A DNA stretch of 15,000 nt. It comes from Actinidia chinensis (taxonomy: Eukaryota > Streptophyta > Magnoliopsida > Ericales > Actinidiaceae). The notes below the pieces were generated by a model, which made no database searches, had not been told where the DNA came from, and was given only the letters and a program-made list of their open reading frames with translations. Position 1 is the first letter of the stretch, and every line of letters begins with the position of its first letter. Below, piece by piece: positions 1 to 12,325 of the stretch. The stretch covers positions 10,306,786 to 10,321,785 of the forward strand of contig CM018915.1 of NCBI GenBank assembly GCA_009663005.1, read 5' to 3'. The translations under genes and the position numbers were made by a program.

Positions 1-562
1 TACATTATGTTCACAAACTTCTCTGTCGGTTTGGCTATTGAATTGTGCCTGAGGTTGGTGTCGACACTACACTTGGAATGTTCCATATTCCGAGTTGTGC
101 TACTGATACTTTGGTGCTGATGAAGGTGTCTACCATGATATTCCAACTTCTGGGTTTGCTACTGACATTTGGGTGTTGAGGTTGGTGTCGACACTTCCTA
201 GCAGAATGTGTTCAATCAACATCATCTTTTTGATCATTTGGGCATTGATTCAACTTTCTTCCTTCCTCTGAATGCATATGGTCTTTAATAACTTAGATCC
301 ATTAAGTTTCCTTTGTTGTTTGAGGCTTCTCCTAATAGCAACTTATTTCTGTTCTCAAAGGTGTCGAACCACTATCAAGCAGGTGTCGACACATCAAACA
401 GGTGTCTACATCCATCAAACAGGGGTCGACACTTTCTTTCTTCAGAAAGTACGTTGTTTGCTTCTTTTAGTCCATAGATCCATGCTTTAGGCTGCACACT
501 TAGGAATTACATTACAACAAATCGGCTGTTTTGTTTCATCGCAATCCAGGCTTGATTCACCA
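1..562 (-). repeat. 3' LTR of the copia element (only its 5' part in element sense is in the window)
   Basis: This stretch aligns collinearly with about 9025-9583. Shared landmarks in the same order are the tandem units ending in GTGTCGACAC (58-67, 185-194), TTCCTAGCA, the TCTTTAATAACT block, the close cluster of GTGTCGACAC variants (361-432), TTTAGTCCATAGATC, and the terminus CTTGATTCACCA. Read on the minus strand the LTR begins TGGTGAATCAAGCC at 562, so it starts with the expected TG. The rest of the LTR lies left of position 1. The two LTRs differ by many small insertions and deletions as well as substitutions. Confidence 0.88.
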
Positions 563-577
563 TCTTCCCCTTTTTTG
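563..577 (-). other. Polypurine tract (plus-strand primer site) of the copia element
   Basis: On the minus strand this reads AAAAAAGGGGAAGA and is immediately followed by the LTR start TGGTGAATC. A purine run abutting the 3' LTR is the site where reverse transcriptase primes second-strand synthesis. Just upstream the minus strand reads GTTTTTGTCATCATC, the sequence commonly found before the tract in SIRE-like elements. This site fixes the inner boundary of the left LTR at 562/563. Confidence 0.85.
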
Positions 578-950
578 ATGATGACAAAAACTTCACAGAA
601 AAAAAATGTAAATACTTTGAAGAGATATATGTTTAGATTTTTAAAACTATTGAAACATGTATATCGATGTATTTCTCCCCCTATTCTTTTGTAATTTATA
701 CATCTTAGATTTGTGTGCAGAAGTCATTCCATTTTTATTAAAAATTGCATCTTGCGTGTAAAAACCACTCCACTGTAAAATCATTCCACATTTCATGCAT
801 CATTCCACATTTCCCTCACATTTCATTTCATTTTCATGCATATAATTCTCCCCCTTTTTGTCAATCGACAAAAAAGATGGTCAATCTACCCAATTTGCCT
901 GAATTGATTTGGCAGATTGAAACTTTCCACTCAGACTAATTCGCAATAAA
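578..950 (-). other. 3' untranslated region of the copia element with two additional polypurine-like tracts and a hairpin
   Basis: AT-rich, no supported coding frame. On the minus strand two further purine runs resemble the terminal tract: one at 672-690 (core AGGGGGAGAAA) and one at 847-859 (AAAAAGGGGGAGAA). Next to the second lies a perfect hairpin, TTTTTGTC (855-862), loop AATC, GACAAAAA (867-874). Several ATTCCACATTTC-like short repeats occur at about 781-835. The similarity of the second tract and its TTGTC flank to the terminal polypurine junction suggests an internal duplication of that junction. Confidence 0.6.
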
Positions 951-2563
951 TAGAAAGTCATAAGTAACCATTGATAATTATCGATGAGTCCAAAATAGAC
1001 ATGCATAGATACAACTGTGAACATAGGAAACTATGCCAAAGAACTACTACATCAGTAATATTATCAGAGCATCTTTTTCTAAGGTCCATTTCAAAGAGGG
1101 GGTGGAGAGATGTGTGAGGGGCATGGATGTGGTTGTGGATGGTTTGTTGAGATGGCGAAGGTGATAAACTCAAAGCCGTAGTCGCGGTGTTTAGAGAATT
1201 TTGAAAGACGACCGAGCGCCTCTGACTGGTTCCGGCGAATTGAGGGAATGGGATATCATCAATACAGTTCAGAACATCATCTCTATTGTCGGTATTCTAC
1301 CCTCTTTCTCTTTGTCCGCAGCTTCTTCCTCATTAACCTCCATCTTCATTTTCTTCGTCTTTTTCTTCTTTCACCTCTCATCGTCTTACCATAGGGCTTT
1401 TTCCTTTCTGCACTTCACTGGCTAATTTTTCTAAGTTGCTTTCAACAACGACCCAATCAGAAAGGCATATTAATCAATTTTGTATGGCAGTTTTTCCTGA
1501 GTCTGACAATTCACCATAAATGCACGTATCTCTGTTTTGACTTTCAGGGGTTCACTTCTATGGGCTCCTGTCCCTTTTTGAATCATACGCTCTCCTCTTC
1601 TCTTTTTGGAAGATTTTAGAGTCCATTGTGAACTTCCTTGTAATTCATATCCCATTCTTTTCATGTCTTCTCATGTATCTAATTACCTCCCTTCCTTACC
1701 CGCCTGAGTCCACTAGCCCACATCACTCCGTCACTCAAAGATTTGAATCTGGTTCCACATTCATAGGGGGAGCAGTGATTTTCTTGAATTGGGCCTTGTG
1801 CTTTGCAAATAACATGGCCCACATCAATTTTTGAGTCTTCACATAGCCCATAAAATACCGTCCCACTGACCTTCGTTTTCCAGTTTTAGGAATCAAATCG
1901 TGCTATGAGTGCATGACCAGCTCAATTTCTAAATGGGGTATGTATTGGGCTGCTAGGCACTAAGCGGACTTGTCTCCAAATCATAACTGCTATCAATATT
2001 TTTCCTTTTTTGCTTTGTCCTTTTACTGCGTCTCCGCTGATTCCACAAGGTTGAATAACAGTTTATCGAAATAGTGTTGTGATATAGTGCGCTGCGGGCC
2101 GTGCCATAAGCCTTGTAACTGAGTCAGCCTAAAGTGAGTGCAGTTCCGCGAGAGCAATTTCATTAAGCTATGCGCGCTGCTCATTAGATATCCCGTATAC
2201 TGGCTACGTCGTAGGAGGCAGTCCCTGCCGAGGCATGAACTCTCAGTTTTGAGCTAAAATCGAATTGTGTGGTACAAAGAAATCGTAGTAGTCTATCCAC
2301 ACCATTTATACTTTTCTGAGCCCTGAGCGAGAACTAGATATACCTCTCTAAGCTCCCGTCTTCAAGGAGTATAGAGGGTCCGCGTTTTCCCTGGTTTGAT
2401 GTTTGACGATGATTCCCTGTCTCTTCTTCCCTATCCGAATCCTCCTCCACACCACCTTCTCTTTTGCCCTTGGATTGTTCTGGTGTCGCACACTCGATCC
2501 CATAGTCTTCTTCTTTCGTTGTGGATCTTTTTGAGTTTGGGCGCATTTTTTGAGAGAAAGCAA
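951..2563 (-). pseudogene. Accessory-region remnant in the position of the SIRE 'env-like' ORF; product not recognised
   Basis: I cannot recognise this protein. It is placed here because in SIRE-type copia elements an extra ORF, often called envelope-like, lies between RNase H and the 3' LTR, and this stretch holds that position. On the minus strand an ATG at 2546 opens a 70-codon frame that is basic and then acidic (residues about 30-45 contain EEDSDREEE); an overlapping frame from 2563 is Lys/Arg-rich. A frameshift probably separates parts of one older frame. Further down, a stop-poor stretch runs about 2250-2040, a 64-codon Lys/Arg-rich frame runs 1664-1470, and a short Glu-rich frame (MEVNEEEAADKEKEG) lies near 1345-1270. 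No signal peptide or membrane segment can be seen with confidence. It could instead be unrelated inserted DNA. Confidence 0.35.
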
Positions 2564-2593
2564 AGGATTTGTGATTGAGAGATCGAGATTTGG

Positions 2594-2990
2594 AGGTTTA
2601 TAGGAGAGTGAATCTGACGGTTTGTGATCGGGGATGTTTCATGGTCTCAGGTGTTTTTGGATGGAGATTAGAAAAAGGAAAGAGATGAGAATACGATGTT
2701 TCGCCATAAACCGAAGGGCCCTCATGTCTTTTATACCATACCCCTGTCAGGTGTCGACACATGCTGTAAGGTGTCGACACCTTGTTTCTTTAAAGTTTTT
2801 CAAAACTTAGTTCTTTTAAATGTCGATTCTTTAACTGAGTGTCGACACTTTACCCTTTAGACTTAACCTATGTCCTAAAAACTTATGTTCGACACTTTGA
2901 AATGATGTGTCGACACTTCAAATTTAATGTAAAACAGAGCGCCGTAAGGGGTCTACACATGAATAAGGTTGTCGACACTCATTGAACTGC
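2594..2990 (-). promoter_or_regulatory. Internal promoter-like spacer: GTGTCGACAC cluster, TATA-like box and pyrimidine-rich leader
   Basis: Exact GTGTCGACAC palindromes occur at 2751-2760, 2771-2780, 2839-2848 and 2907-2916, with near copies at about 2889, 2951 and 2969-2978. This is the same motif that fills the LTR U3. On the minus strand the cluster ends 13 bases before GGTATAAAAG (2737-2728), a good TATA-like sequence. A leader of roughly 150 bases follows, with C/T-rich blocks at about 2695-2650, a second weaker TATA-like CTATAAACC (2603-2595), and then the ATG at 2546 of the accessory frame. The arrangement resembles a promoter with upstream elements. Transcription from it is inferred, not shown. 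Confidence 0.45.
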
Positions 2991-3109
2991 AGAGTTTCAT
3001 TTTGTGCCAGTGTGAGTTTGAAAATTCTTCTTTTAAAAAAAAAAAAACTTTTCCCTTTCTTTTTTTTTTGTTTTTAGGTGTGTTTGCTCAACCAATGTCT
3101 CATTCTATT

Positions 3110-3600
3110 GGGATGCTCATTCCTATGTCTCTCCTAATCTACAAATCGATCTTTCGCTTCAAGGTTTTGTGAAAATGTCCAGCAAGTTGTTTTTCAGTTT
3201 CACAAATTTCAAGTTCAATAATCTCCTTTTCTTCTACGTGGTCTCGTATAATGGTAATCTAATTTCAATATGCTTAGTACGAGAATATTGGATGGGATTT
3301 TTGTCAATTTTGTTCCTCGTATTATCACATTTTAATGGGAAGGTGATCTAATTAATTCCTAATCCTCTAATTGATGTTTCATCCATAACCTTGTGCACAA
3401 CAACTACCGGCTGCAACATACTCAGCCTCCGCCGGGGATAATGCTATGAATTTTGTTTTTTGCAAAACAAGAACATCATATTACCTAGAGTTTGACACGA
3501 GCACTTGTACTTTTCCTATCAATCTTACTTCCTTTCCCGCATAATATCGGCATCGGGTAAGCATAAATTATGATGTGTCCCTTAGTGTACTATGACCTAG
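3110..3600 (-). pseudogene. Copia RNase H domain, decayed
   Basis: RNase H removes the RNA strand from the RNA/DNA hybrid during reverse transcription. On the minus strand, ALSPAEAEYVAAGSCCAQ is readable at 3444-3391 and matches the copia signature usually written LSTAEAEY, including the catalytic Glu. Upstream at about 3520 a KEVRLIGK-like stretch replaces the usual DRKSTSG block. Downstream KCDNTRNKIDKNPIQYSRTK (about 3335-3275) matches the CDN..AI.I..NP..HSRTKHIDI block, and LDIFTKP (about 3181-3160) matches the usual C-terminal ADIFTKPL. These blocks are separated by stops and shifts of frame, so no full domain can be made. Pol coding ends near 3110, after which the spacer with A-tracts starts. 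Confidence 0.85.
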
Positions 3601-4640
3601 ATTTGGTGTGTTTTTAAGATATCGAAAAATTCGTTTTACAGCAATACATGTGATTCTTTAGATTTGATTGAAATCTTGCACCCACACACCTAACCATAAT
3701 GTGTCGGGTTCGACTAGCAGTCAAATATAGTAAAGACCAATCAACATGGCTTCTATCAGTTTGAAATCAACAGATTTACTCCGTTGTCCGTTATCCAATT
3801 TGGTGAGGTGCTCAGTGGCGTGCTTGGCTGCCTCTTTCCATCCGAACTTTCTGATCAGTTTCTTAGTATAATTTGGCTTGAATTGATAAAAATACCTTCC
3901 TTGATTGTCTTTATTTGTAATCCAAGAAAGTAGTTCATGCTCCCATCATACTCATTTCAATTCTCCCCTGCATACACTAGCAATTCTTTGCAAAGAGATT
4001 TCTTTAGTACACCAAAGGATATATCATCAACTAATTATTGTGCTAGGAGTATGTCCTTTGTTTTCAACTTTTATAAAGAGATAGTGTCTATTTTTCCTCT
4101 TGAAAATCCTTTGCTTTCAATTAGAAATTTGCTCAACCGTTTCATACCAAGCCTTGGAGCTTGTTCAATCCATAATGAGCCTTTAGATAACGTAAAAACA
4201 TGATCTGTAATTTTTGATCTTCAAAACCAGGAGGTTGCTCATAACATATACCTCTTCATGTTATATAACCATATTAGGAAGCCCTTTAACATCCATTTAG
4301 TAAGTTTAAATCCTCTAAAGCATGCAAGCAAGTAACATTCTAATTGCTTCTAATCTAGCTTCAGGTGGCGAAGGTTTCGTCAAAGTCAATTCCTTCTTCT
4401 TGACTCTATCCTTTAGCAACCAGTTCCCGAAGCTTTGTTCCTCACAACTATTTCGGATTCATCCATTTATTTCTAAATACCCATTTTGGTTCATACCGGG
4501 TGATCTTAGGTCTAAGGACAAGTTGCCCATACTTCATTCCTTTCAATTGTTAAGTTCTTCTTGCATTGCGTTTATTATCCAAATTCATCATTTTCACATC
4601 TTCAAACGTTTGGTTCTATTGAGAAAGAATGCAAGATCGA
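3600..4640 (-). pseudogene. Copia reverse transcriptase domain, decayed
   Basis: RNA-dependent DNA polymerase of the element. Motifs in order on the minus strand: KWVFRNK (about 4500-4480), VAKG followed by a degraded GIDF..TFAPV block (about 4400-4350), QAPRLGMKRLSKFLIES (about 4165-4110, from the family's LKQAPRAWYERL), VDDISFG (4031-4011, the catalytic YVDD box, with the preceding Tyr position disturbed by a stop), MNYFLGLQIKTIKEGIFIN (about 3938-3880), and a PSTPLSTS block near 3810, then degraded matches to the YLTASRPDI and RYLKNT blocks to 3610. The two catalytic aspartates of the VDD box are kept. Many stops and frameshifts make it non-functional. Confidence 0.9.
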
Positions 4641-4960
4641 TACAAAGATGTTGATAGAGGAACTAGTTCTTCCCTTTGTGTAGGGATCACCGCGGATTTT
4701 TAAACCAGTAGGGTGGTTTTGCACAAATTTCCTTTCTTTAGGTAGTCGTCCATTTTTCTTTTGTTTGTCTAGAGAAACTTCTTGTGTCTCATCCTCCTTT
4801 TGTTGATTATCCTTGTGCTTGGTTGTTCATTCTATTTCTCTATATTTTGCTCATCTTCTCCCATTTCTTCACGTATTACTTTTTTACTTGTCAGATATGC
4901 TCAATCAAAAGTGACATGACCGATTCTTCTACTCTAGGTTCTTTATTAACACTCTAGTAT
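4640..4960 (-). pseudogene. Linker between copia integrase and reverse transcriptase, decayed
   Basis: This stretch bridges the integrase C-terminal part and the start of the reverse transcriptase. Translated on the minus strand it gives hydrophilic, Lys/Glu-rich pieces (for example EEMGEDEQNIEK near 4870-4835) typical of the variable linker in SIRE-like polyproteins. No catalytic motif is expected here and none is visible. Confidence 0.55.
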
Positions 4961-5770
4961 GGATTTGCTATGGGCATTGAATACCAATAAAATTCCTTCA
5001 TCACTTTTTTGCGTCAAATTTTTCAAGATATCTTGTATTATTTAAAGCAAGCAATTTGCAAACCCAACATTTTTGAAATAATAAATGTTAGGTTTTTGTC
5101 TTTCCAAGCGCATAGGGAGTTTTTGTTTAAGAGTTTTCTAAATAGAATTCGATTTAAAACGTAGCAGGATGTATTGACTGCTCAGCCCAAAAATATTTTG
5201 GGTAACTATTTCACACAACCATGGTCTTCCCATTTCTCTTTAAAACTCTATTTTTTCTTTCGACAACTCTATTTTGTTGAGGTGTTCTAGGAACACAATG
5301 GATCAAAACCGTTTTTCATCACAAAGAATTTCAAAAGTTTTGCAACTCAAATTTTCCCTCCATGATCGGTTCTAATTAGAGGTATTGAATATACCCCCTT
5401 GTCATTTTGAACCTTTTCTACAAAATTTTGTAAAATAGATCATTATTTCATCTTATGCGCTAAGAAAGGGTCCATGTGAATCTTGAATAGTCCTCAACAA
5501 TAACAAGTGCAATATTGCTTTCACCAGAACTTAATGTTCTTGATGGTCCAAATAAGTCCATATACAATAGTTGAATTGGCCTATTTTCTGTTGATCTTAT
5601 TTATGATTTAAAAGATATTCTAGTTTGTTTTTCCCCATTTGACAAGCATCACAAATTTTGTTCTTTCTCAAATTTAAATTTTGGGAACCCCTTTGGCCAA
5701 ATCAGTTTTGAATCTTTTCAAGTATGCTCATCCTAATATGGCCAAGTCTTCTATGCCACAGCCCACTTTT
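4960..5770 (-). pseudogene. Copia integrase (GAG-pre-integrase plus catalytic core), decayed
   Basis: Integrase inserts the DNA copy into the genome. The pre-integrase zinc-binding motif LWHRRLGH is intact at about 5760-5734 on the minus strand; the paired CxxC is blurred by a frameshift. In the catalytic core, YMDLFGPSRTLSSGE (about 5566-5520) carries the first Asp, LIRTDHGGKFE (about 5380-5349) the second Asp, and RTPQQNRVVERKNRVL (about 5291-5244) the Glu, so all three DDE residues can still be read, though in different frames. QKSDEGI near 5018-4998 matches the family's C-terminal block (usually DAKSDEGIFLGYS). Stop codons interrupt the frame, for instance after KTMVV. Confidence 0.9.
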
Positions 5771-5977
5771 CCATCATTATTCATAGACAGGCGAGGCAAT
5801 TCATATCACAAGAGGATCATCATTTAAGTTGAACACGTAAATATTGCCTTGTCTATGACCAATGAAGACTTGTTTGTTATTCTTATGTCTATTACATCAC
5901 ATTTTAGGATTCAAAAATACCTTGCTCCTTTGTCACATATTTTGCACTACTACTTAGGAGAATTGTGTTTAAATCCT

Positions 5978-6199
5978 TTAACTAGCAGCACATTTCATAG
6001 AGGTTGAGGAGTTCTTACCAATACATCCTATTCCGATGATCTTTCCTTTGCCATTGTCCTCCCAAGTTGCATATCCTCCATCCTTTGGCCTTAATGATTG
6101 AAATTGAGTTTCATCTCCCGTCATATGCCTTGAGCACCCGCTAATCCAAGTACCATTGCATTTTTGGAATGAATTTTGCTTGGAAGACATACCTAACAA
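5978..6199 (-). pseudogene. Copia aspartic protease domain, catalytic Asp missing
   Basis: The retropepsin-type protease cuts the gag-pol polyprotein. A 73-codon open frame on the minus strand carries NGTWISGCSRHMTGDETQ near residues 15-32, followed by SLRPKDGGY and GKGKIIGIGCIG. Copia proteases usually have WYLDSGCSRHMTG here, where D-S-G is the catalytic triad of residues. In this copy the Asp position is Ile (ISG), so even this open piece would be inactive unless the base is a sequence error. The GKIIGIG block (residues about 51-57) is well kept. The ATG at 6199 is a chance start inside the polyprotein rather than a true start codon. Confidence 0.88.
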
Positions 6200-6689
6200 A
6201 AAAAAATTATTTTACTTTAGTACCCAATCACAGCTTGGGTCCTTGGGGGTTAGTTCTCAATGGTCACCTTCTCGAGACCCATGCATTTTTAGGAAATTTT
6301 GATCTTTGGTATATAGAGACATCTATTAGGCAATATTCCATATTAATGACAGTAGAAACACTAGTATAGATTTCTTTTCAGAATAAGGTTTAATTTTTTG
6401 AAGATAATTTTTCTTTTAAATGGATTGAAACCAATTCCTACTTGTCAAGACAAGCATGTCTGTTTTTTTCAAGATTGCTTGCAACTTATCTTTTCCCTCT
6501 ACAACAACACTTTGAATAGAGTTGATTCCAACGTATTTAAACCTTTCATTTCAGATTTGTTTTTTCTTTTAGTAATTCGTTTGGAGAAACATTTTCAGTA
6601 ATTGGGTGTTTTAAACAGTAACTGTATTTTTAGACTATCATTTTCTTTTGTAAGTCCTCATTCTCTTTTAGAAAGTGTAATCATCTTTT
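6200..6689 (-). pseudogene. Copia gag-protease linker, no readable motif
   Basis: This stretch lies between the conserved gag block ending near 6736 and the protease at 6199. It is AT-rich and heavily interrupted. By position it must be the C-terminal gag/linker part of the polyprotein, which is variable in the family and usually Lys/Asn-rich and coiled-coil forming. I see no motif that confirms it directly. Confidence 0.5.
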
Positions 6690-7873
6690 GAAGTATGCTG
6701 CTATTTTTAATTCCTATTTCTTCTTGAATTCACTCTCATTAATTCATCAAATGCATCTTGTAACTCATTAAATGTAATCGAAGATGTATTAGAATGTGAT
6801 ACCATCATCTTCACATCCCCTTACTCAGCCATGAACAAAGATTTGCCACTTCTTTTGGTTCGGCCTCATCTTCCGGATCCGGATTCTTCTTCACCATCAC
6901 TCCATATCATAGCTGCTATGACCCCTTTTTCCGCTTTCTCCTTATGTCTTTCTTTTGAGTAACGACTTTCAGCTTTTTCATATGTCCGGGCTTTACATTC
7001 AAAGCATATAACTTGATGACTATTGTTGCAATCGCCTCTCCCCTCATGCCCTTTTCTTTTCCTCCTCTCCATTTCTTTTCTTCCAATGAATCTTTCACAT
7101 TTTACGAGTGATGAGCGCATGTTCTTTCTTCATCATCTCCTTCACCTGACGATTCGTCTTCGTGATTTAATGGATTTGAATGCTACCGTTGTTCTTTTCT
7201 TTCCTCATCATCTGGATAGGTATTTTTGAGTGAGCTCATGAGTCATAAATAACCCCAAAGCTCATCAAGAGCTAGAGTTGTTGAGATCTTTTGCTTCTTG
7301 AATTGCCGTGGACTTTAAGCTTTCCCATGCCTTCGGTAGGCTCTCAAAATTTTGTCTTAACCTGCTCATTGTTTAGATAAACCTCCAAGAGATTTAAGCC
7401 ATTTGACATATCAGTAAATCTTGTGACATTTCGGTGATTGATTCTTTTATTTTCATTCTAATATTCAGAGTTCTGAACTAAGATATTGAGTTTAGATTCC
7501 TTAAACGTGGACTAGTTCCTTCGTGAGTTTCTTCTAGTCGATCCTTTCTTTTGCTGACTCACACATTGAGATTCTTTTTTACTCATTTGGATCTATGCAC
7601 AATATAAGATATTCATCAGCCTTAGAGTTGATTGCAAAACATTTTTAAGTCTTTTCATCCCAAGTGGAATTCGGGATCTATAGAGGTCCTCCGCTTCAAT
7701 TATTTATGTTGGAGTTTTATAGGCCCATTTAAATAATTCTCCATAAATCATAATCTACGATTTAACTTAGTTCTCATTCTATTTTTTCCAGTAATTAATT
7801 TGTTCCTTAAAACTAGTGTGGGCCTATTGTAGATTGACCTCCCGAGAGAGTTTCCAAAATTGGTTTGACCCAT
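6690..7873 (-). pseudogene. Copia gag (capsid/nucleocapsid) remnant
   Basis: Gag builds the virus-like particle and binds the RNA. The ATG at 7873 opens MGQTNFGNSLGRSIYNRPTL, then NRMRTKL, which fits the N-terminus of SIRE-like gag and lies about 40 bases after the primer site; a stop follows after 41 codons. Further on, RFTDMSNGLNLLEVYLNNEQ (about 7422-7359) matches the family's FTDI..GL..LGK..TNEE block. Near 7015-6970 the nucleocapsid zinc knuckle is split: CFEC is in one frame and PGHMKK in another, pointing to a small deletion. The SSITFNELQDAFDELM block (about 6785-6736) matches the coiled, conserved segment after the knuckle. The first 300 bases after the ATG are the least well preserved part. 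Confidence 0.85.
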
Positions 7874-7912
7874 GGATCTCTTTCCTATGATGTTACGCTT
7901 AAAATATTAATA

Positions 7913-7928: not shown

Positions 7929-8477
7929 TATTGGTCGAATAGGCAACCCAAGAGGGGGGGTGAATTGGGTTTTTTCAATATAACTTAGTAAATTAGAGTT
8001 AATTGACAATTAATATAATTTTATAAGATAACCACATACATGTGAATCAAAATGATAAATGACAAGAAGCCCCCAAGATTTACCGAGTTCGATCACATCC
8101 GTGATCTACGTCCCCCAAGACCTCCGCAAGATCTTCTTCACTAATTTTGTAAATATCCGCAACTACAAGTGGGTCTGATTCTAATTGCTCAGCCTCATTT
8201 TACACCAAATGTTTTTGTCGGCTCCACTCCACTTCCTGTGTTTTTACTTACAAGAGAAAACACTCAACTCTTAAGTGTTTTGGCTTTCCAAGGAAACACT
8301 CAAACGCTCACCAAGTGTTTTTGTTCCAAGCTACACTCAATTTACACGGGTATAGATGTATATGGATAATACAAAGTGAAAGACAAACTCTCTTTAAAGA
8401 GTAGCTAGGAGGAAATCACACAATGAATGTTAACTCACTGAAATGAAATTGTATCTAAGACGCACTTGACCTGTTTT

Positions 8478-8491
8478 GCTTTTTATATCTC
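8478..8491 (-). promoter_or_regulatory. Candidate TATA box of the copia LTR
   Basis: The minus strand reads AGATATAAAAAGC here, a good TATA-like sequence located on the 3' side (element sense) of the GTGTCGACAC array. That would place the array in U3 upstream of the core promoter and transcription start near 8450. This is a positional inference; no start site can be seen. Confidence 0.45.
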
Positions 8492-8708
8492 TTAATCAAA
8501 TTTAAAATCTCAAGAACACAAAACAACCCCTTGATGCAACTTGGAGGCTTGCATTAATAGCTTGAATTAAATAGATAGCCGTTGGGGTAGTTGTAGTGGA
8601 TTTTAATGCTGTACCAGATAACTCTGCGTTTTGAAATAATACCGTTAGTGTCCGACACATTCTTTTCAGGTGGTCGACACTTTGTGGGTGTCCGACACTT
8701 CTTTTATG

Positions 8709-9219
8709 GTGTCGACACTTCCCAAGCTATCATTGCTTCGTTAAACTGTCTCCTTGGTGCTGATATTGGTGTCGACACTTGAGGTCCCAAATTTTCTGGG
8801 CTCCTTTACTGACTTTTTGGAATTGTGCTGAGTATGTGTCGATACTTCGATTTCTATATTCCTGAGTTTTGCTACTGATACTTTGGTGCTGATGTAGGTG
8901 TCGACACCATGATTTTTCTAAACTTCTGGGTTTGGGCTACTGACATTTGGTGCTAAGTTGGTGTCCACACTGGTATTTCATATTTCTCCGAGTTTTGCTA
9001 CTTATAGTTTGTGCTGATAGGGTGTCGATACATGATGGTCCAAACTTCTGGGTTTGGCTACTGACCTTTGTGCTGAGGTTTGGTGTTCGACACTTGATGT
9101 TCCATATTTCCGAGTTTGCTACTGATACTACTCTGGTGCTGATGAGTGGTCACACATGATATTCCAAACTTCTGGTTTGGCTACTGACATTTTCGGTGCT
9201 GAGGTTTTGGTGTCGACAC
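8709..9219 (-). repeat. U3 minisatellite: about 62-bp tandem units, each capped by GTGTCGACAC or a variant
   Basis: Unit ends (last base of the palindrome or its variant) fall at about 8718, 8778, 8845, 8907, 8970, 9031, 9093, 9155 and 9219, giving steps of 60 to 69 and mostly 61-64 bases. Two unit types alternate: one with CCAAACTTCTGGGTTTGGC, the other with TTCCGAGTTTTGCTACTGAT; both share GCTACTGA and GGTGCTGA before the palindrome. So the repeat has a higher-order dimer of about 125 bp. Exact GTGTCGACAC copies are at 8709, 8769, 8898 and 9210; others have one or two changes. The array is truncated at the window edge in the left LTR (units ending 67, about 135, 194). Confidence 0.85.
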
Positions 9220-9373
9220 TTCCTAGCAAGAATGTGTTCAATCATCTTTTTGTCCATTTTGGCATTGAGATCCTACTTCCTCCTTCCTCTGAATCATATG
9301 TCTTTAATAACTAGATCTTTAATTCCTTTTTTGTTTGAGGCTTCTCACAGATCTATCAAAATTATTTTTGGTC

Positions 9374-9465
9374 TCAAAGGTGTCGAAAAAAAAAAAACCC
9401 CCACTATTACGCAAGGTGTCGACACTTCAAACATGTGTCGACACCATCAACACTGGTGTCGACAC
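9374..9465 (-). repeat. Second, closely spaced GTGTCGACAC cluster in the LTR (near its 5' end)
   Basis: Exact palindromes occur at 9416-9425, 9435-9444 and 9456-9465, about 20 bases apart, with a degraded copy at about 9380. The same cluster in the left LTR (361-432) has one exact copy (383-392) and three variants. The linkers (TTCAAACAT, CATCAACACT) are related, so this is a short-period tandem repeat distinct from the 62-bp array, about 160-200 bases from it. Confidence 0.8.
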
Positions 9466-9785
9466 TTTCTTTCAAACTACTTGTGTGCTTCTTTAGTCCA
9501 TAGATCTCCGTATCTTAAGGCGCACACTTACCATTAATTAACACATAGGCTTTTTTGTTCATCGATCAAGGCTTGATTCACCACCATAAGGCACATGCTG
9601 GCCGAAAATATAAGACATGAGCATGTCTAATGGCAGTAACCTAAAAATACCTACCCACAGGGCAGGTGACGTGTCATTTGAGGTAAGGGTAGGCGAGAGG
9701 TTGTGCCCTCAGAATGGCTTGAAGGGTAAGCAAGCTATGTCGTATTACGATAAGGCAAAAAAGTCAGGCGTAGGATTCTGTTAAG

Positions 9786-11520: not shown

Positions 11521-12325
11521 GTGACTGAGTTGAATGGATCCAATTATAGAGTTTCTGCGCAATGATAAGCTATCAGAGGATAAAAGAAAGGCGCACAAGT
11601 TCTGAGTGAAGGCAACATGTTTTCAAATTTTTCCAACGAGAAACTTATACAAGAAGTCTTACAAGGGGCCCTATCTATTGTGTGTCCACCTGAGCTTAGT
11701 AGAAGATGTTTTGTTTGAAATCCATGAAGGAGTTTGCAGACTACACTTTAGGGGAAGATTGTTGGCGTACTGAGCTTTAATGAAAGGCTATTGGTGGTTT
11801 TATATGCAAAGTGATGCCTAATTGTATGTCCACAAGTGCATGAAGTGTTAACTTTTTTCTCCGCTCATTCACCATTCAGCTAGGGATATGATCCCATCCA
11901 CCAGTTTGTGGCCCTTCGCTTAGTAGGAAATAGACATCGTGTGAGTACTTTCCTGAGCTCCATAAAATAAGAACTCCTTACTGGCTTCCACGGATTACTT
12001 CACCAAATGGGTCGAAGTTGAACCGTTGGCCCAGATCAGGGAGGTTAATGTGATTAAGTTTATCCTCAATAATATTCTATCTCGGTTTAGGATCCGTAGA
12101 GCTTTCATGTTAGATGACGGAAACCAGTTCATTGGCTAAAAAGTCAAGGAGTTGTTAGACGAGCTTAAAATTGAGTTTACAATTCAACACCGAGTTACCA
12201 ATGCAATAAGCATGCTAAGGCAACTAACAAAACTATCATGAATGGGATAAGGCAACCAACAAAACTATCATGAATGGGATAAAGAAGAAGTTTGAAAAAG
12301 CCAAAGGCAAATATGTCGAGGACCT
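11521..12325 (+). pseudogene. Gypsy integrase remnant, truncated
   Basis: Integrase of the gypsy element. WMDPIIEFLRNDKLSEDKRK (about 11534-11593) opens the N-terminal part; NLYKKSYKGPYLLCVH and EDVLFEIHEGVCRLHFRGR follow, then the zinc-binding end HKCMKC (about 11832-11850). In the core, EIDIV (about 11926-11941) carries the first catalytic Asp, TDYFTKWVEVEPLAQIREVN (about 11991-12050) is well kept, and DDGNQF (about 12113-12131) carries the second Asp. The catalytic Glu block, normally NGQAE before ATNKT, reads NKHAKAT, so Glu is Lys. A 32-bp tandem duplication (12217-12280) then shifts the frame. The last match is KAKGKYVEDLY to 12325; the C-terminal third is absent. Confidence 0.88.
12217..12280 (+). 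repeat. 32-bp tandem duplication in the gypsy integrase
   Basis: Positions 12217-12248 and 12249-12280 are adjacent copies that differ only at one base (CAACTAAC against CAACCAAC). Both encode the ATNKTIMNG block. Because 32 is not a multiple of three, the duplication shifts the reading frame. The near identity means it arose recently compared with the surrounding decay, or is an assembly artefact. Confidence 0.95.

What the first reader, a model, noticed from the sequence alone, without database searches (positions are those of the whole stretch)
2546..2990. Possible internal promoter: U3-type palindrome cluster, TATA-like box and leader ahead of the accessory frame
Four exact and about three near copies of GTGTCGACAC sit between RNase H and the accessory region, far from both LTRs. 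On the minus strand the cluster ends 13 bases before GGTATAAAAG, and a C/T-rich leader of about 150 bases leads to the ATG of the accessory frame. The order (palindromes, TATA, leader, ATG) parallels that of the LTR. SIRE1 of soybean is thought to express its env-like ORF by stop-codon readthrough from pol, so a separate internal promoter built from the LTR's own elements would be a different strategy.
Basis: inference. Interest (0 to 1): 0.75.

Follow-up and report, generated by a model that had tools for sequence, protein, structure and literature searches.

The report
Internal promoter of plant retrotransposon accessory gene
A decayed plant retrotransposon carries, in front of its accessory gene, a second promoter-like block that uses the same palindromic boxes as its terminal repeats; related copies in the same genome keep the block, often with the same spacing, which makes an internal promoter the likeliest reading, although no transcript was examined.

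Summary
On the minus strand the window holds a decayed Sirevirus-type copia element; between RNase H and its accessory (env-like) frame lie four exact and several near GTGTCGACAC palindromes, GGTATAAAAG, a 160-base C/T-rich leader and an ATG. In loci chosen by RNase H alone the cluster is present in 26 of 30 (2 of the other 4 are all N). The TATA usually starts 22 bases after the start of the last palindrome (25 in the window copy) and about 197 before the ATG. An exact genome-wide pattern gave 7 hits, all with an 11-base spacer although 5-30 were allowed, all upstream of an accessory ATG. The LTR shares the palindromes but not the TATA core or leader, so this is not an LTR fragment. Stops in every frame exclude readthrough; no splice-acceptor AG is common to the leaders. 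A start-like CA step is found in the sister clade but mostly not in the window's own. Such palindromes upstream of ENV and the internal-promoter idea are in print (Bousios 2010, citing Peterson-Burch and Voytas 2002), but that paper could not identify the promoter; this is a candidate. No transcript data were available.

The parts
2751..2978 (-). Palindrome (RM) cluster: four exact GTGTCGACAC (2907-2916, 2839-2848, 2771-2780, 2751-2760) and near copies at 2969-2978 and 2949-2958
   Evidence: cluster in 26 of 30 RNase H-anchored loci
2728..2737 (-). TATA box GGTATAAAAG of the putative internal promoter; 25 bases from last palindrome start to TATA start in this copy, 22 in most measured relatives
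2547..2706 (-). Predicted 5' leader (C+T 62%, G 7%), with a pyrimidine patch ending CTCCATCCAAAAAC at 2666-2653 that recurs in relatives
2334..2546 (-). Start of the accessory (env-like) frame, open for 70 codons in this decayed copy; an RM-like site with one inserted base lies inside it at 2493-2483
   Evidence: 38% identity over 55 aa to a 405-aa Actinidia rufa protein, E 1e-7
3140..7900 (-). Remains of gag-pol, many frame breaks; Pol_BBD fragment at 5978-6211
   Evidence: RNase H end about 3140 read by eye
7930..9583 (-). 5' LTR: begins TGGTGAATCAAGCC, U3 RM array of about 62-base units (8862-9219), poly-C integrase signal at 7948-7964; 3' end at about 7930 estimated by eye
1..562 (-). 3' LTR, first part only (runs off the window)
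563..857 (-). Polypurine tracts: 847-857 (exact AAAGGGGGAGA), 674-684 and 563-573 (one mismatch each); the single motif is not rare by chance (10 matches with up to 2 mismatches, 5.85 expected)

Best explanation
The block is an internal RNA polymerase II promoter that gives the accessory (env-like) gene of this Sirevirus its own capped mRNA. Inferred steps: a host factor binds arrays of the palindrome GTGTCGACAC; the last two palindromes sit two helical turns apart and two turns from the TATA box, so the bound factors face the pre-initiation complex; transcription starts about 30 bases downstream of the TATA (at a CA step in the sister clade; the step is less clear in the window's own clade), reads a C/T-rich, G-poor leader of about 160-170 bases, and the ribosome starts at an ATG in a plant-like context (AAAATGGC). 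Because the LTR U3 carries the same palindromes in front of a different TATA core, one factor could switch on the genomic RNA and the accessory mRNA together. Shown by sequence: cluster, spacing, TATA, leader, ATG and their recurrence. Inferred: factor binding, start site, transcript.
For: RNase H-anchored loci chosen without the block: RM (at most 1 mismatch) within 1000 bases downstream in 26 of 30; 210 sites in the first 800 bases against 0.35 in shuffles. RM-to-TATAWA distance of 22 in 14 pairs and 43 in 10 (26 loci); the best single offset in 200 shuffles averaged 2.6, maximum 5. Genome-wide exact pattern with spacer 5-30: 7 hits, all with spacer 11, reversed-pattern control 0; all 7 have ATGGC 182-219 bases after the TATA. 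Test not selected on TATA (anchored on the leader's pyrimidine patch): 24 of 28 readable loci anchored; exact TATA in 15 of 24 (mean mismatches 0.50 against 1.70 in shuffles); RM at -22 with at most 2 mismatches in 15 of 24, at -43 in 11 of 24 (mean 2.33 mismatches at -22 against 7.16 at shifted positions). CA step at 27-31 in 10 of 11 sister-clade-type loci. TATA-to-ATG median 197 in the 18 of 26 loci measured. Stops in all three frames of the linker in 16 of 16 loci examined (5-27 per frame). Of eight full or partial relatives read, four begin at the predicted ATG (MAPKS or MAPKT: P0003, P0004, P0021, P0022).
Against: No transcript, CAGE or reporter evidence. All copies are old (highest pairwise RNase H-region identity 0.83 among the 20 compared), so part of the likeness is shared ancestry and the 7 fixed spacers are not independent events. 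The CA step was measured only outside the window's clade; in the eight loci of the window's clade (tree) CATT is seen at that place only in L022 (read), mostly TCTT otherwise, and the window copy has neither. Upstream ATGs in the leader are not depleted (16 found, 20.6 expected, 18 loci). The window copy has 25 instead of 22 bases and a broken frame. L037 lacks the cluster, L040 (120 N) too; L030 has a cluster but no recognisable core; 2 of 5 readable env-anchored loci (L078, L079) lack the module. The 0.87 identities of RM and TATA are inflated because those loci were chosen for having them.
Confidence: 0.7

Rival explanations
1. The accessory gene is expressed from a spliced LTR transcript; the C/T-rich leader is the polypyrimidine region of a 3' splice site.
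For: Splicing is reported for the barley element Bagy2 (passage of PMC7264820), and splice acceptors have been predicted for BAGY2 and Athila (PMC2829016 section 20). The leader is pyrimidine-rich. An AG 101-102 bases before the ATG recurs in L012, L014 and L023.
Against: No AG is shared by the leaders: 41 AG against 69.5 expected in 18 loci (14 of them in L025 with its insertion), none at all in L016, L032 and L036. A splice acceptor does not explain a TATA box at a preferred 22 bases from the palindromes. An acceptor further upstream, within the palindrome array, was not tested.
Confidence: 0.13
2. The palindromes are not promoter parts but serve as enhancer or insulator, as RNA dimerisation or packaging sites, or are simply a drifting tandem array; the TATA is incidental.
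For: Internal arrays are tandem repeats (71-, 49- and 21-base units in L018; spacings of 20-22 in 62 and 48-50 in 26 of 174) and so are U3 arrays (62- and 21-base units); a 10-base self-complementary motif could pair between RNAs.
Against: The TATA distance is preferred relative to the last palindromes and is followed by leader and ATG in register; 15 of 24 exact TATAs in the test anchored elsewhere.
Confidence: 0.11
3. The block is a fragment of another LTR inserted between pol and the accessory gene.
For: It shares the palindrome and a 21-base repeat step with the LTR; a purine-rich tract precedes it at about 3076-3030 in the window and in some other copies.
Against: The TATA core and leader have no convincing LTR match (with LTR-LTR and core-core comparisons of the same sequences as positive controls); the main tandem unit differs (71 against 62); different RM-TATA distance (22 against 89-149); present at the same place in 26 of 30 loci.
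Confidence: 0.04
4. Readthrough of the pol stop codon, as proposed for SIRE1.
For: Reported for SIRE1 (PMC2829016 section 20).
Against: 506-954 bases lie between the RNase H end and the ATG, with 5-27 stops in each frame in 16 of 16 loci examined.
Confidence: 0.01

Closest known systems
Sirevirus RM boxes upstream of ENV (Bousios et al. 2010, PMC2829016)
   Same: Palindromic boxes in the LTR upstream of a TATA and again between pol and ENV; extra boxes at the start of ENV in Osr10 and HOPIE, as here; multiple PPTs; poly-C integrase signal.
   Different: Here the box is GTGTCGACAC, without the CGG-CCG signature of the published boxes other than Tnd-1. A TATA core at a preferred distance is identified; the authors wrote that they could not conclusively identify an internal promoter.
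SIRE1 of soybean
   Same: Copia element with an env-like gene after pol.
   Different: [quoted passage not shown] here a 506-954-base linker full of stops separates them.
Maize Grande gene23
   Same: Accessory gene in the 3' internal region of a plant LTR retrotransposon with its own promoter; by the title of Gomez-Orte et al. 2013 (seen in reference lists only) it encodes a nuclear protein.
   Different: Grande's gene is antisense to gag-pol (passage of the review PMC7264820); here it is sense. No sequence comparison was made.
Foamy virus internal promoter
   Same: A second promoter inside the provirus (figure legend of PMC7828637). That one viral activator acts on both promoters is recalled, not from a call.
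   Different: Animal retrovirus; no sequence comparison made; that the promoter lies within env is recalled.

Membership tests
Sirevirus (Ty1/copia) | Multiple polypurine tracts upstream of the 3' LTR | tested here: met
   Three PPT-like tracts on the minus strand at 847-857, 674-684 and 563-573, though single motif hits are not rare by chance (10 found, 5.85 expected). The published AT between terminal PPT and TG is not seen in this copy.
Sirevirus (Ty1/copia) | Poly-C-rich integrase signal at the 3' end of the LTR | tested here: met
   TTCACCCCCCCTCTTGG at 7948-7964, 0 expected; pattern typed from the window, likeness to the published signal judged from its name only.
Sirevirus (Ty1/copia) | Palindromic repeated motifs in the LTR upstream of the TATA | tested here: met
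Sirevirus (Ty1/copia) | Additional repeated motifs upstream of ENV in ENV-containing members | tested here: met
   26 of 30 RNase H-anchored loci.
Sirevirus (Ty1/copia) | CGG-CCG core of the repeated motif | tested here: not met
   Motif is GTGTCGACAC; the paper names Tnd-1 as another exception, so this is not an exclusive feature of the genus.
Sirevirus (Ty1/copia) | Copia-type pol placed in the SIRE lineage by RT phylogeny | tested here: inconclusive
   Pol_BBD fragment found (E 8.6e-7); RT too broken in this copy and no RT tree was built.
RNA polymerase II promoter | TATA box about 30 bases upstream of a pyrimidine-purine start step | tested here: inconclusive
   CA at 27-31 in 10 of 11 loci outside the window's clade; in the window's clade CATT at that place in 1 of 8 loci (L022; read).
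RNA polymerase II promoter | Capped transcripts starting there | not testable with these tools
   No transcript data available.
Retroviral-type envelope protein | Transmembrane segment | tested here: not met
   By hydropathy only: highest 19-residue Kyte-Doolittle mean 1.38-1.44 in P0001, P0003 and P0004; Pfam PF20167 Transposase_32 above its cut-off in P0003, P0021 and P0022.

The most novel reading that the evidence does not exclude
A foamy-virus-like two-promoter circuit in a plant retrotransposon: the accessory protein is not an envelope but a nuclear regulator that acts, directly or through a host factor, on the palindromes present both in the LTR and in its own promoter, so that an internal promoter starts a feedback loop that then drives the LTR. 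Consistent with this: the shared palindromes, no transmembrane segment by hydropathy, a basic N-terminus with KKRK-type runs in P0003, P0004 and P0021-like sequences, and a long helix at 295-343 in an otherwise poor model. Not tested: DNA binding, nuclear location; the fold prediction was uninformative (mean pLDDT 38.4).
Probability: 0.1. Interest if true: 0.88.

Novelty: new variant of a known kind. Interest (0 to 1): 0.6.

Why it matters
How Sireviruses express their env-like gene has been an open question, and an internal promoter was proposed but not located (PMC2829016 section 20). [quoted passage not shown] A phased palindrome-palindrome-TATA-leader-ATG module gives a precise, testable candidate, predicts roughly where the 5' end of the RNA should lie, and suggests that one host factor co-regulates both promoters.

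Tried and rejected
A fuzzy module test (up to 3 edits in the palindrome, spacer 8-15) was too permissive: 19 of 28 loci against 4-12 in ten shuffles; it is not used. The identities of 0.87 for RM and TATA come from loci selected for having them; one search replaces them. In one search the ATG of the window copy (L011) was taken at a later ATGG (232 instead of 189 bases), so its leader there includes 43 bases of the frame; the median is little affected. Pfam on ten stop-to-stop pieces of the window gave Pol_BBD and a weak rve only; the 273-aa piece of L045 hit PF20167 below its cut-off. Rfam and tRNA scans were empty; the bacterial promoter scan is irrelevant to a plant. Structure prediction of P0003 was too poor for a fold search, so none was run. 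No solved structure matched by sequence. A link between the palindrome core GTCGAC and AP2/ERF (CBF/DREB) binding sites is recalled only. Paper searches on which the prior-art statements rest; the library lacks most subscription papers.

Full report
What is there. The window (G000:C28:10306786-10321785 in a 638-Mb genome) holds a decayed LTR retrotransposon on the minus strand: 5' LTR about 9583 to 7930 starting TGGTGAATCAAGCC with a poly-C integrase signal at 7948-7964, broken gag-pol, RNase H ending about 3140, the block in question, the accessory frame from 2546, polypurine tracts at 847-857, 674-684 and 563-573 and the first part of the 3' LTR. The host is probably an Actinidia: large contigs are numbered up to C29 in the matches, and the named relatives of the accessory protein are nearly all from Actinidia rufa, with two from A. 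eriantha and one from A. chinensis. The species is inferred, not given.

The observation. Four exact palindromes, two more with at most two mismatches, GGTATAAAAG 13 bases after the last, a 160-base leader and an ATG are all present. Window-wide, 25 sites with at most two mismatches stand against 2.56 expected.

Independent sampling. I searched the genome with the RNase H end only (window 3130-3900; 41 matches, loci cut for 30). In 26 of these 30 a palindrome with at most one mismatch lies within 1000 bases downstream; L035 and L039 are all N there, L040 has 120 N of 1100 and none, L037 has none. In the first 800 bases of the 30 loci there were 210 sites against 0.35 in shuffles. The search with the block itself gave ten loci, which necessarily contain parts of it.

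The metric. Across the 26 loci the distance from palindrome start to TATAWA start peaks at 22 (14 pairs) and 43 (10 pairs); in 200 shuffles that kept the palindromes in place the best offset averaged 2.6 and never exceeded 5. An exact genome-wide pattern allowing 5-30 bases between palindrome and CTATAAATA found 7 places, every one with 11 bases, none for the reversed control; each has ATGGC 182-219 bases after the TATA. Five of the 7 are loci already in the RNase H set. Successive palindromes inside the block are 20-22 apart in 62 of 174 cases (10 of 50 in eight LTRs). Because choosing loci by TATA is circular, I anchored instead on the pyrimidine patch of the leader: 24 of 28 readable loci anchored, exact TATA in 15 of 24, palindrome with at most 2 mismatches at -22 in 15 of 24 and at -43 in 11 of 24. 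TATA to ATG has median 197 in 18 of the 26 loci, the other 8 lacking a TATA-like match at 20-25.

The start step. A CA step sits 27-31 bases after the TATA in 10 of 11 loci outside the window's clade; L025 has an insertion there. In the eight loci of the window's clade (tree) the same place mostly reads TCTT, with CATT only in L022, and the window copy has neither (read). So the start step is a sister-clade feature at best. A CACGTG just after it is seen in L016, L017, L018, L020 and L033.

A second sampling by the accessory protein (65 matches) was read at 12 places of 1 kb: 5 are wholly N, 2 mostly N; of the 5 others, L068 (186 N) and L073 show the palindrome and TATA at 22, L074 a decayed TATA at the same place, L078 and L079 no module (L079 has one palindrome with 2 mismatches).

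Not an LTR piece. The main internal unit is 71 bases (L018), the main LTR unit 62 (window), although 21-base units occur in both. Among the best alignments shown between the two arrays of one element (top four per locus, 8 loci) the longest is 51 bases at 78%, and these carry palindromes. The LTR TATA-like box CCATTAAATACAAG lies 89-149 bases after the last palindrome in 5 of 6 loci, none found in L050, and core-plus-leader has no convincing LTR match in seven LTR sequences.

Not readthrough, probably not splicing. Every frame of the linker carries 5-27 stops in 16 of 16 loci examined. The leaders are AG-poor (41 against 69.5 expected in 18 loci; none in three loci) and no AG is common to them; an acceptor inside the palindrome array was not tested. 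Upstream ATGs are not depleted (16 against 20.6), which counts mildly against a tuned leader.

The gene. The accessory frame is homologous to proteins of 402-494 aa and shorter ones. Of eight sequences read, four start at the predicted ATG with MAPKS or MAPKT (P0003, P0004, P0021, P0022) and four start further in (P0001, P0002, P0008, P0010). Pfam PF20167 is above its cut-off in P0003, P0021 and P0022. No transmembrane segment is evident by hydropathy in three of them. In 11 of 28 loci a further palindrome with at most 2 mismatches lies 47-64 bases inside the frame, where it encodes VVSTP or a variant in several copies. Of single-mismatch internal palindromes, 43 of 102 are CpG transitions, as would be expected of methylated, silenced copies.

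Known and new. Bousios et al. 2010 (PMC2829016; abstract, sections 9, 10, 19 and 20 and a passage of 11 seen) describe palindromic boxes in Sirevirus LTRs and upstream of ENV in nine elements, boxes at the start of ENV in two, and discuss the internal promoter of Peterson-Burch and Voytas 2002 (not seen) without being able to identify it. MASiVEdb (PMC3414828, passages) lists stop-codon suppression and internal promoter as the alternatives. My searches found no paper that locates it (listings only except where passages are cited). New here are the box variant, the preferred palindrome-TATA phase, and evidence that core and leader are not LTR-derived.

Limits. One genome, old copies, many N; likeness is partly ancestry; no RNA evidence.

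Noticed in passing
window 3030-3076: A purine-rich tract (A-run, GAAAGGGAAAAG) followed by a T-run lies just after RNase H and ahead of the internal palindrome block, also in several other copies; it resembles a polypurine tract in front of a U3.
   Followed up: partly
window 2483-2493; loci L013, L016-L018, L020, L021, L024, L025, L027, L032, L038: A palindrome lies inside the accessory frame, 47-64 bases after the ATG in 11 of 28 loci, and encodes VVSTP or a close variant in several copies.
   Followed up: partly
window 12216-12282: Two head-to-tail copies of a 32-base unit, 97% alike, outside the element.
   Followed up: no
L013 and L019: Long C or G homopolymer runs inside the leader or just after the TATA in single copies, possibly assembly artefacts.
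   Followed up: no
L025 and L048: Insertions inside the block: about 100 bases between TATA and leader in L025, and most of the cluster with its TATA displaced by about 600 bases in L048/L026.
   Followed up: no
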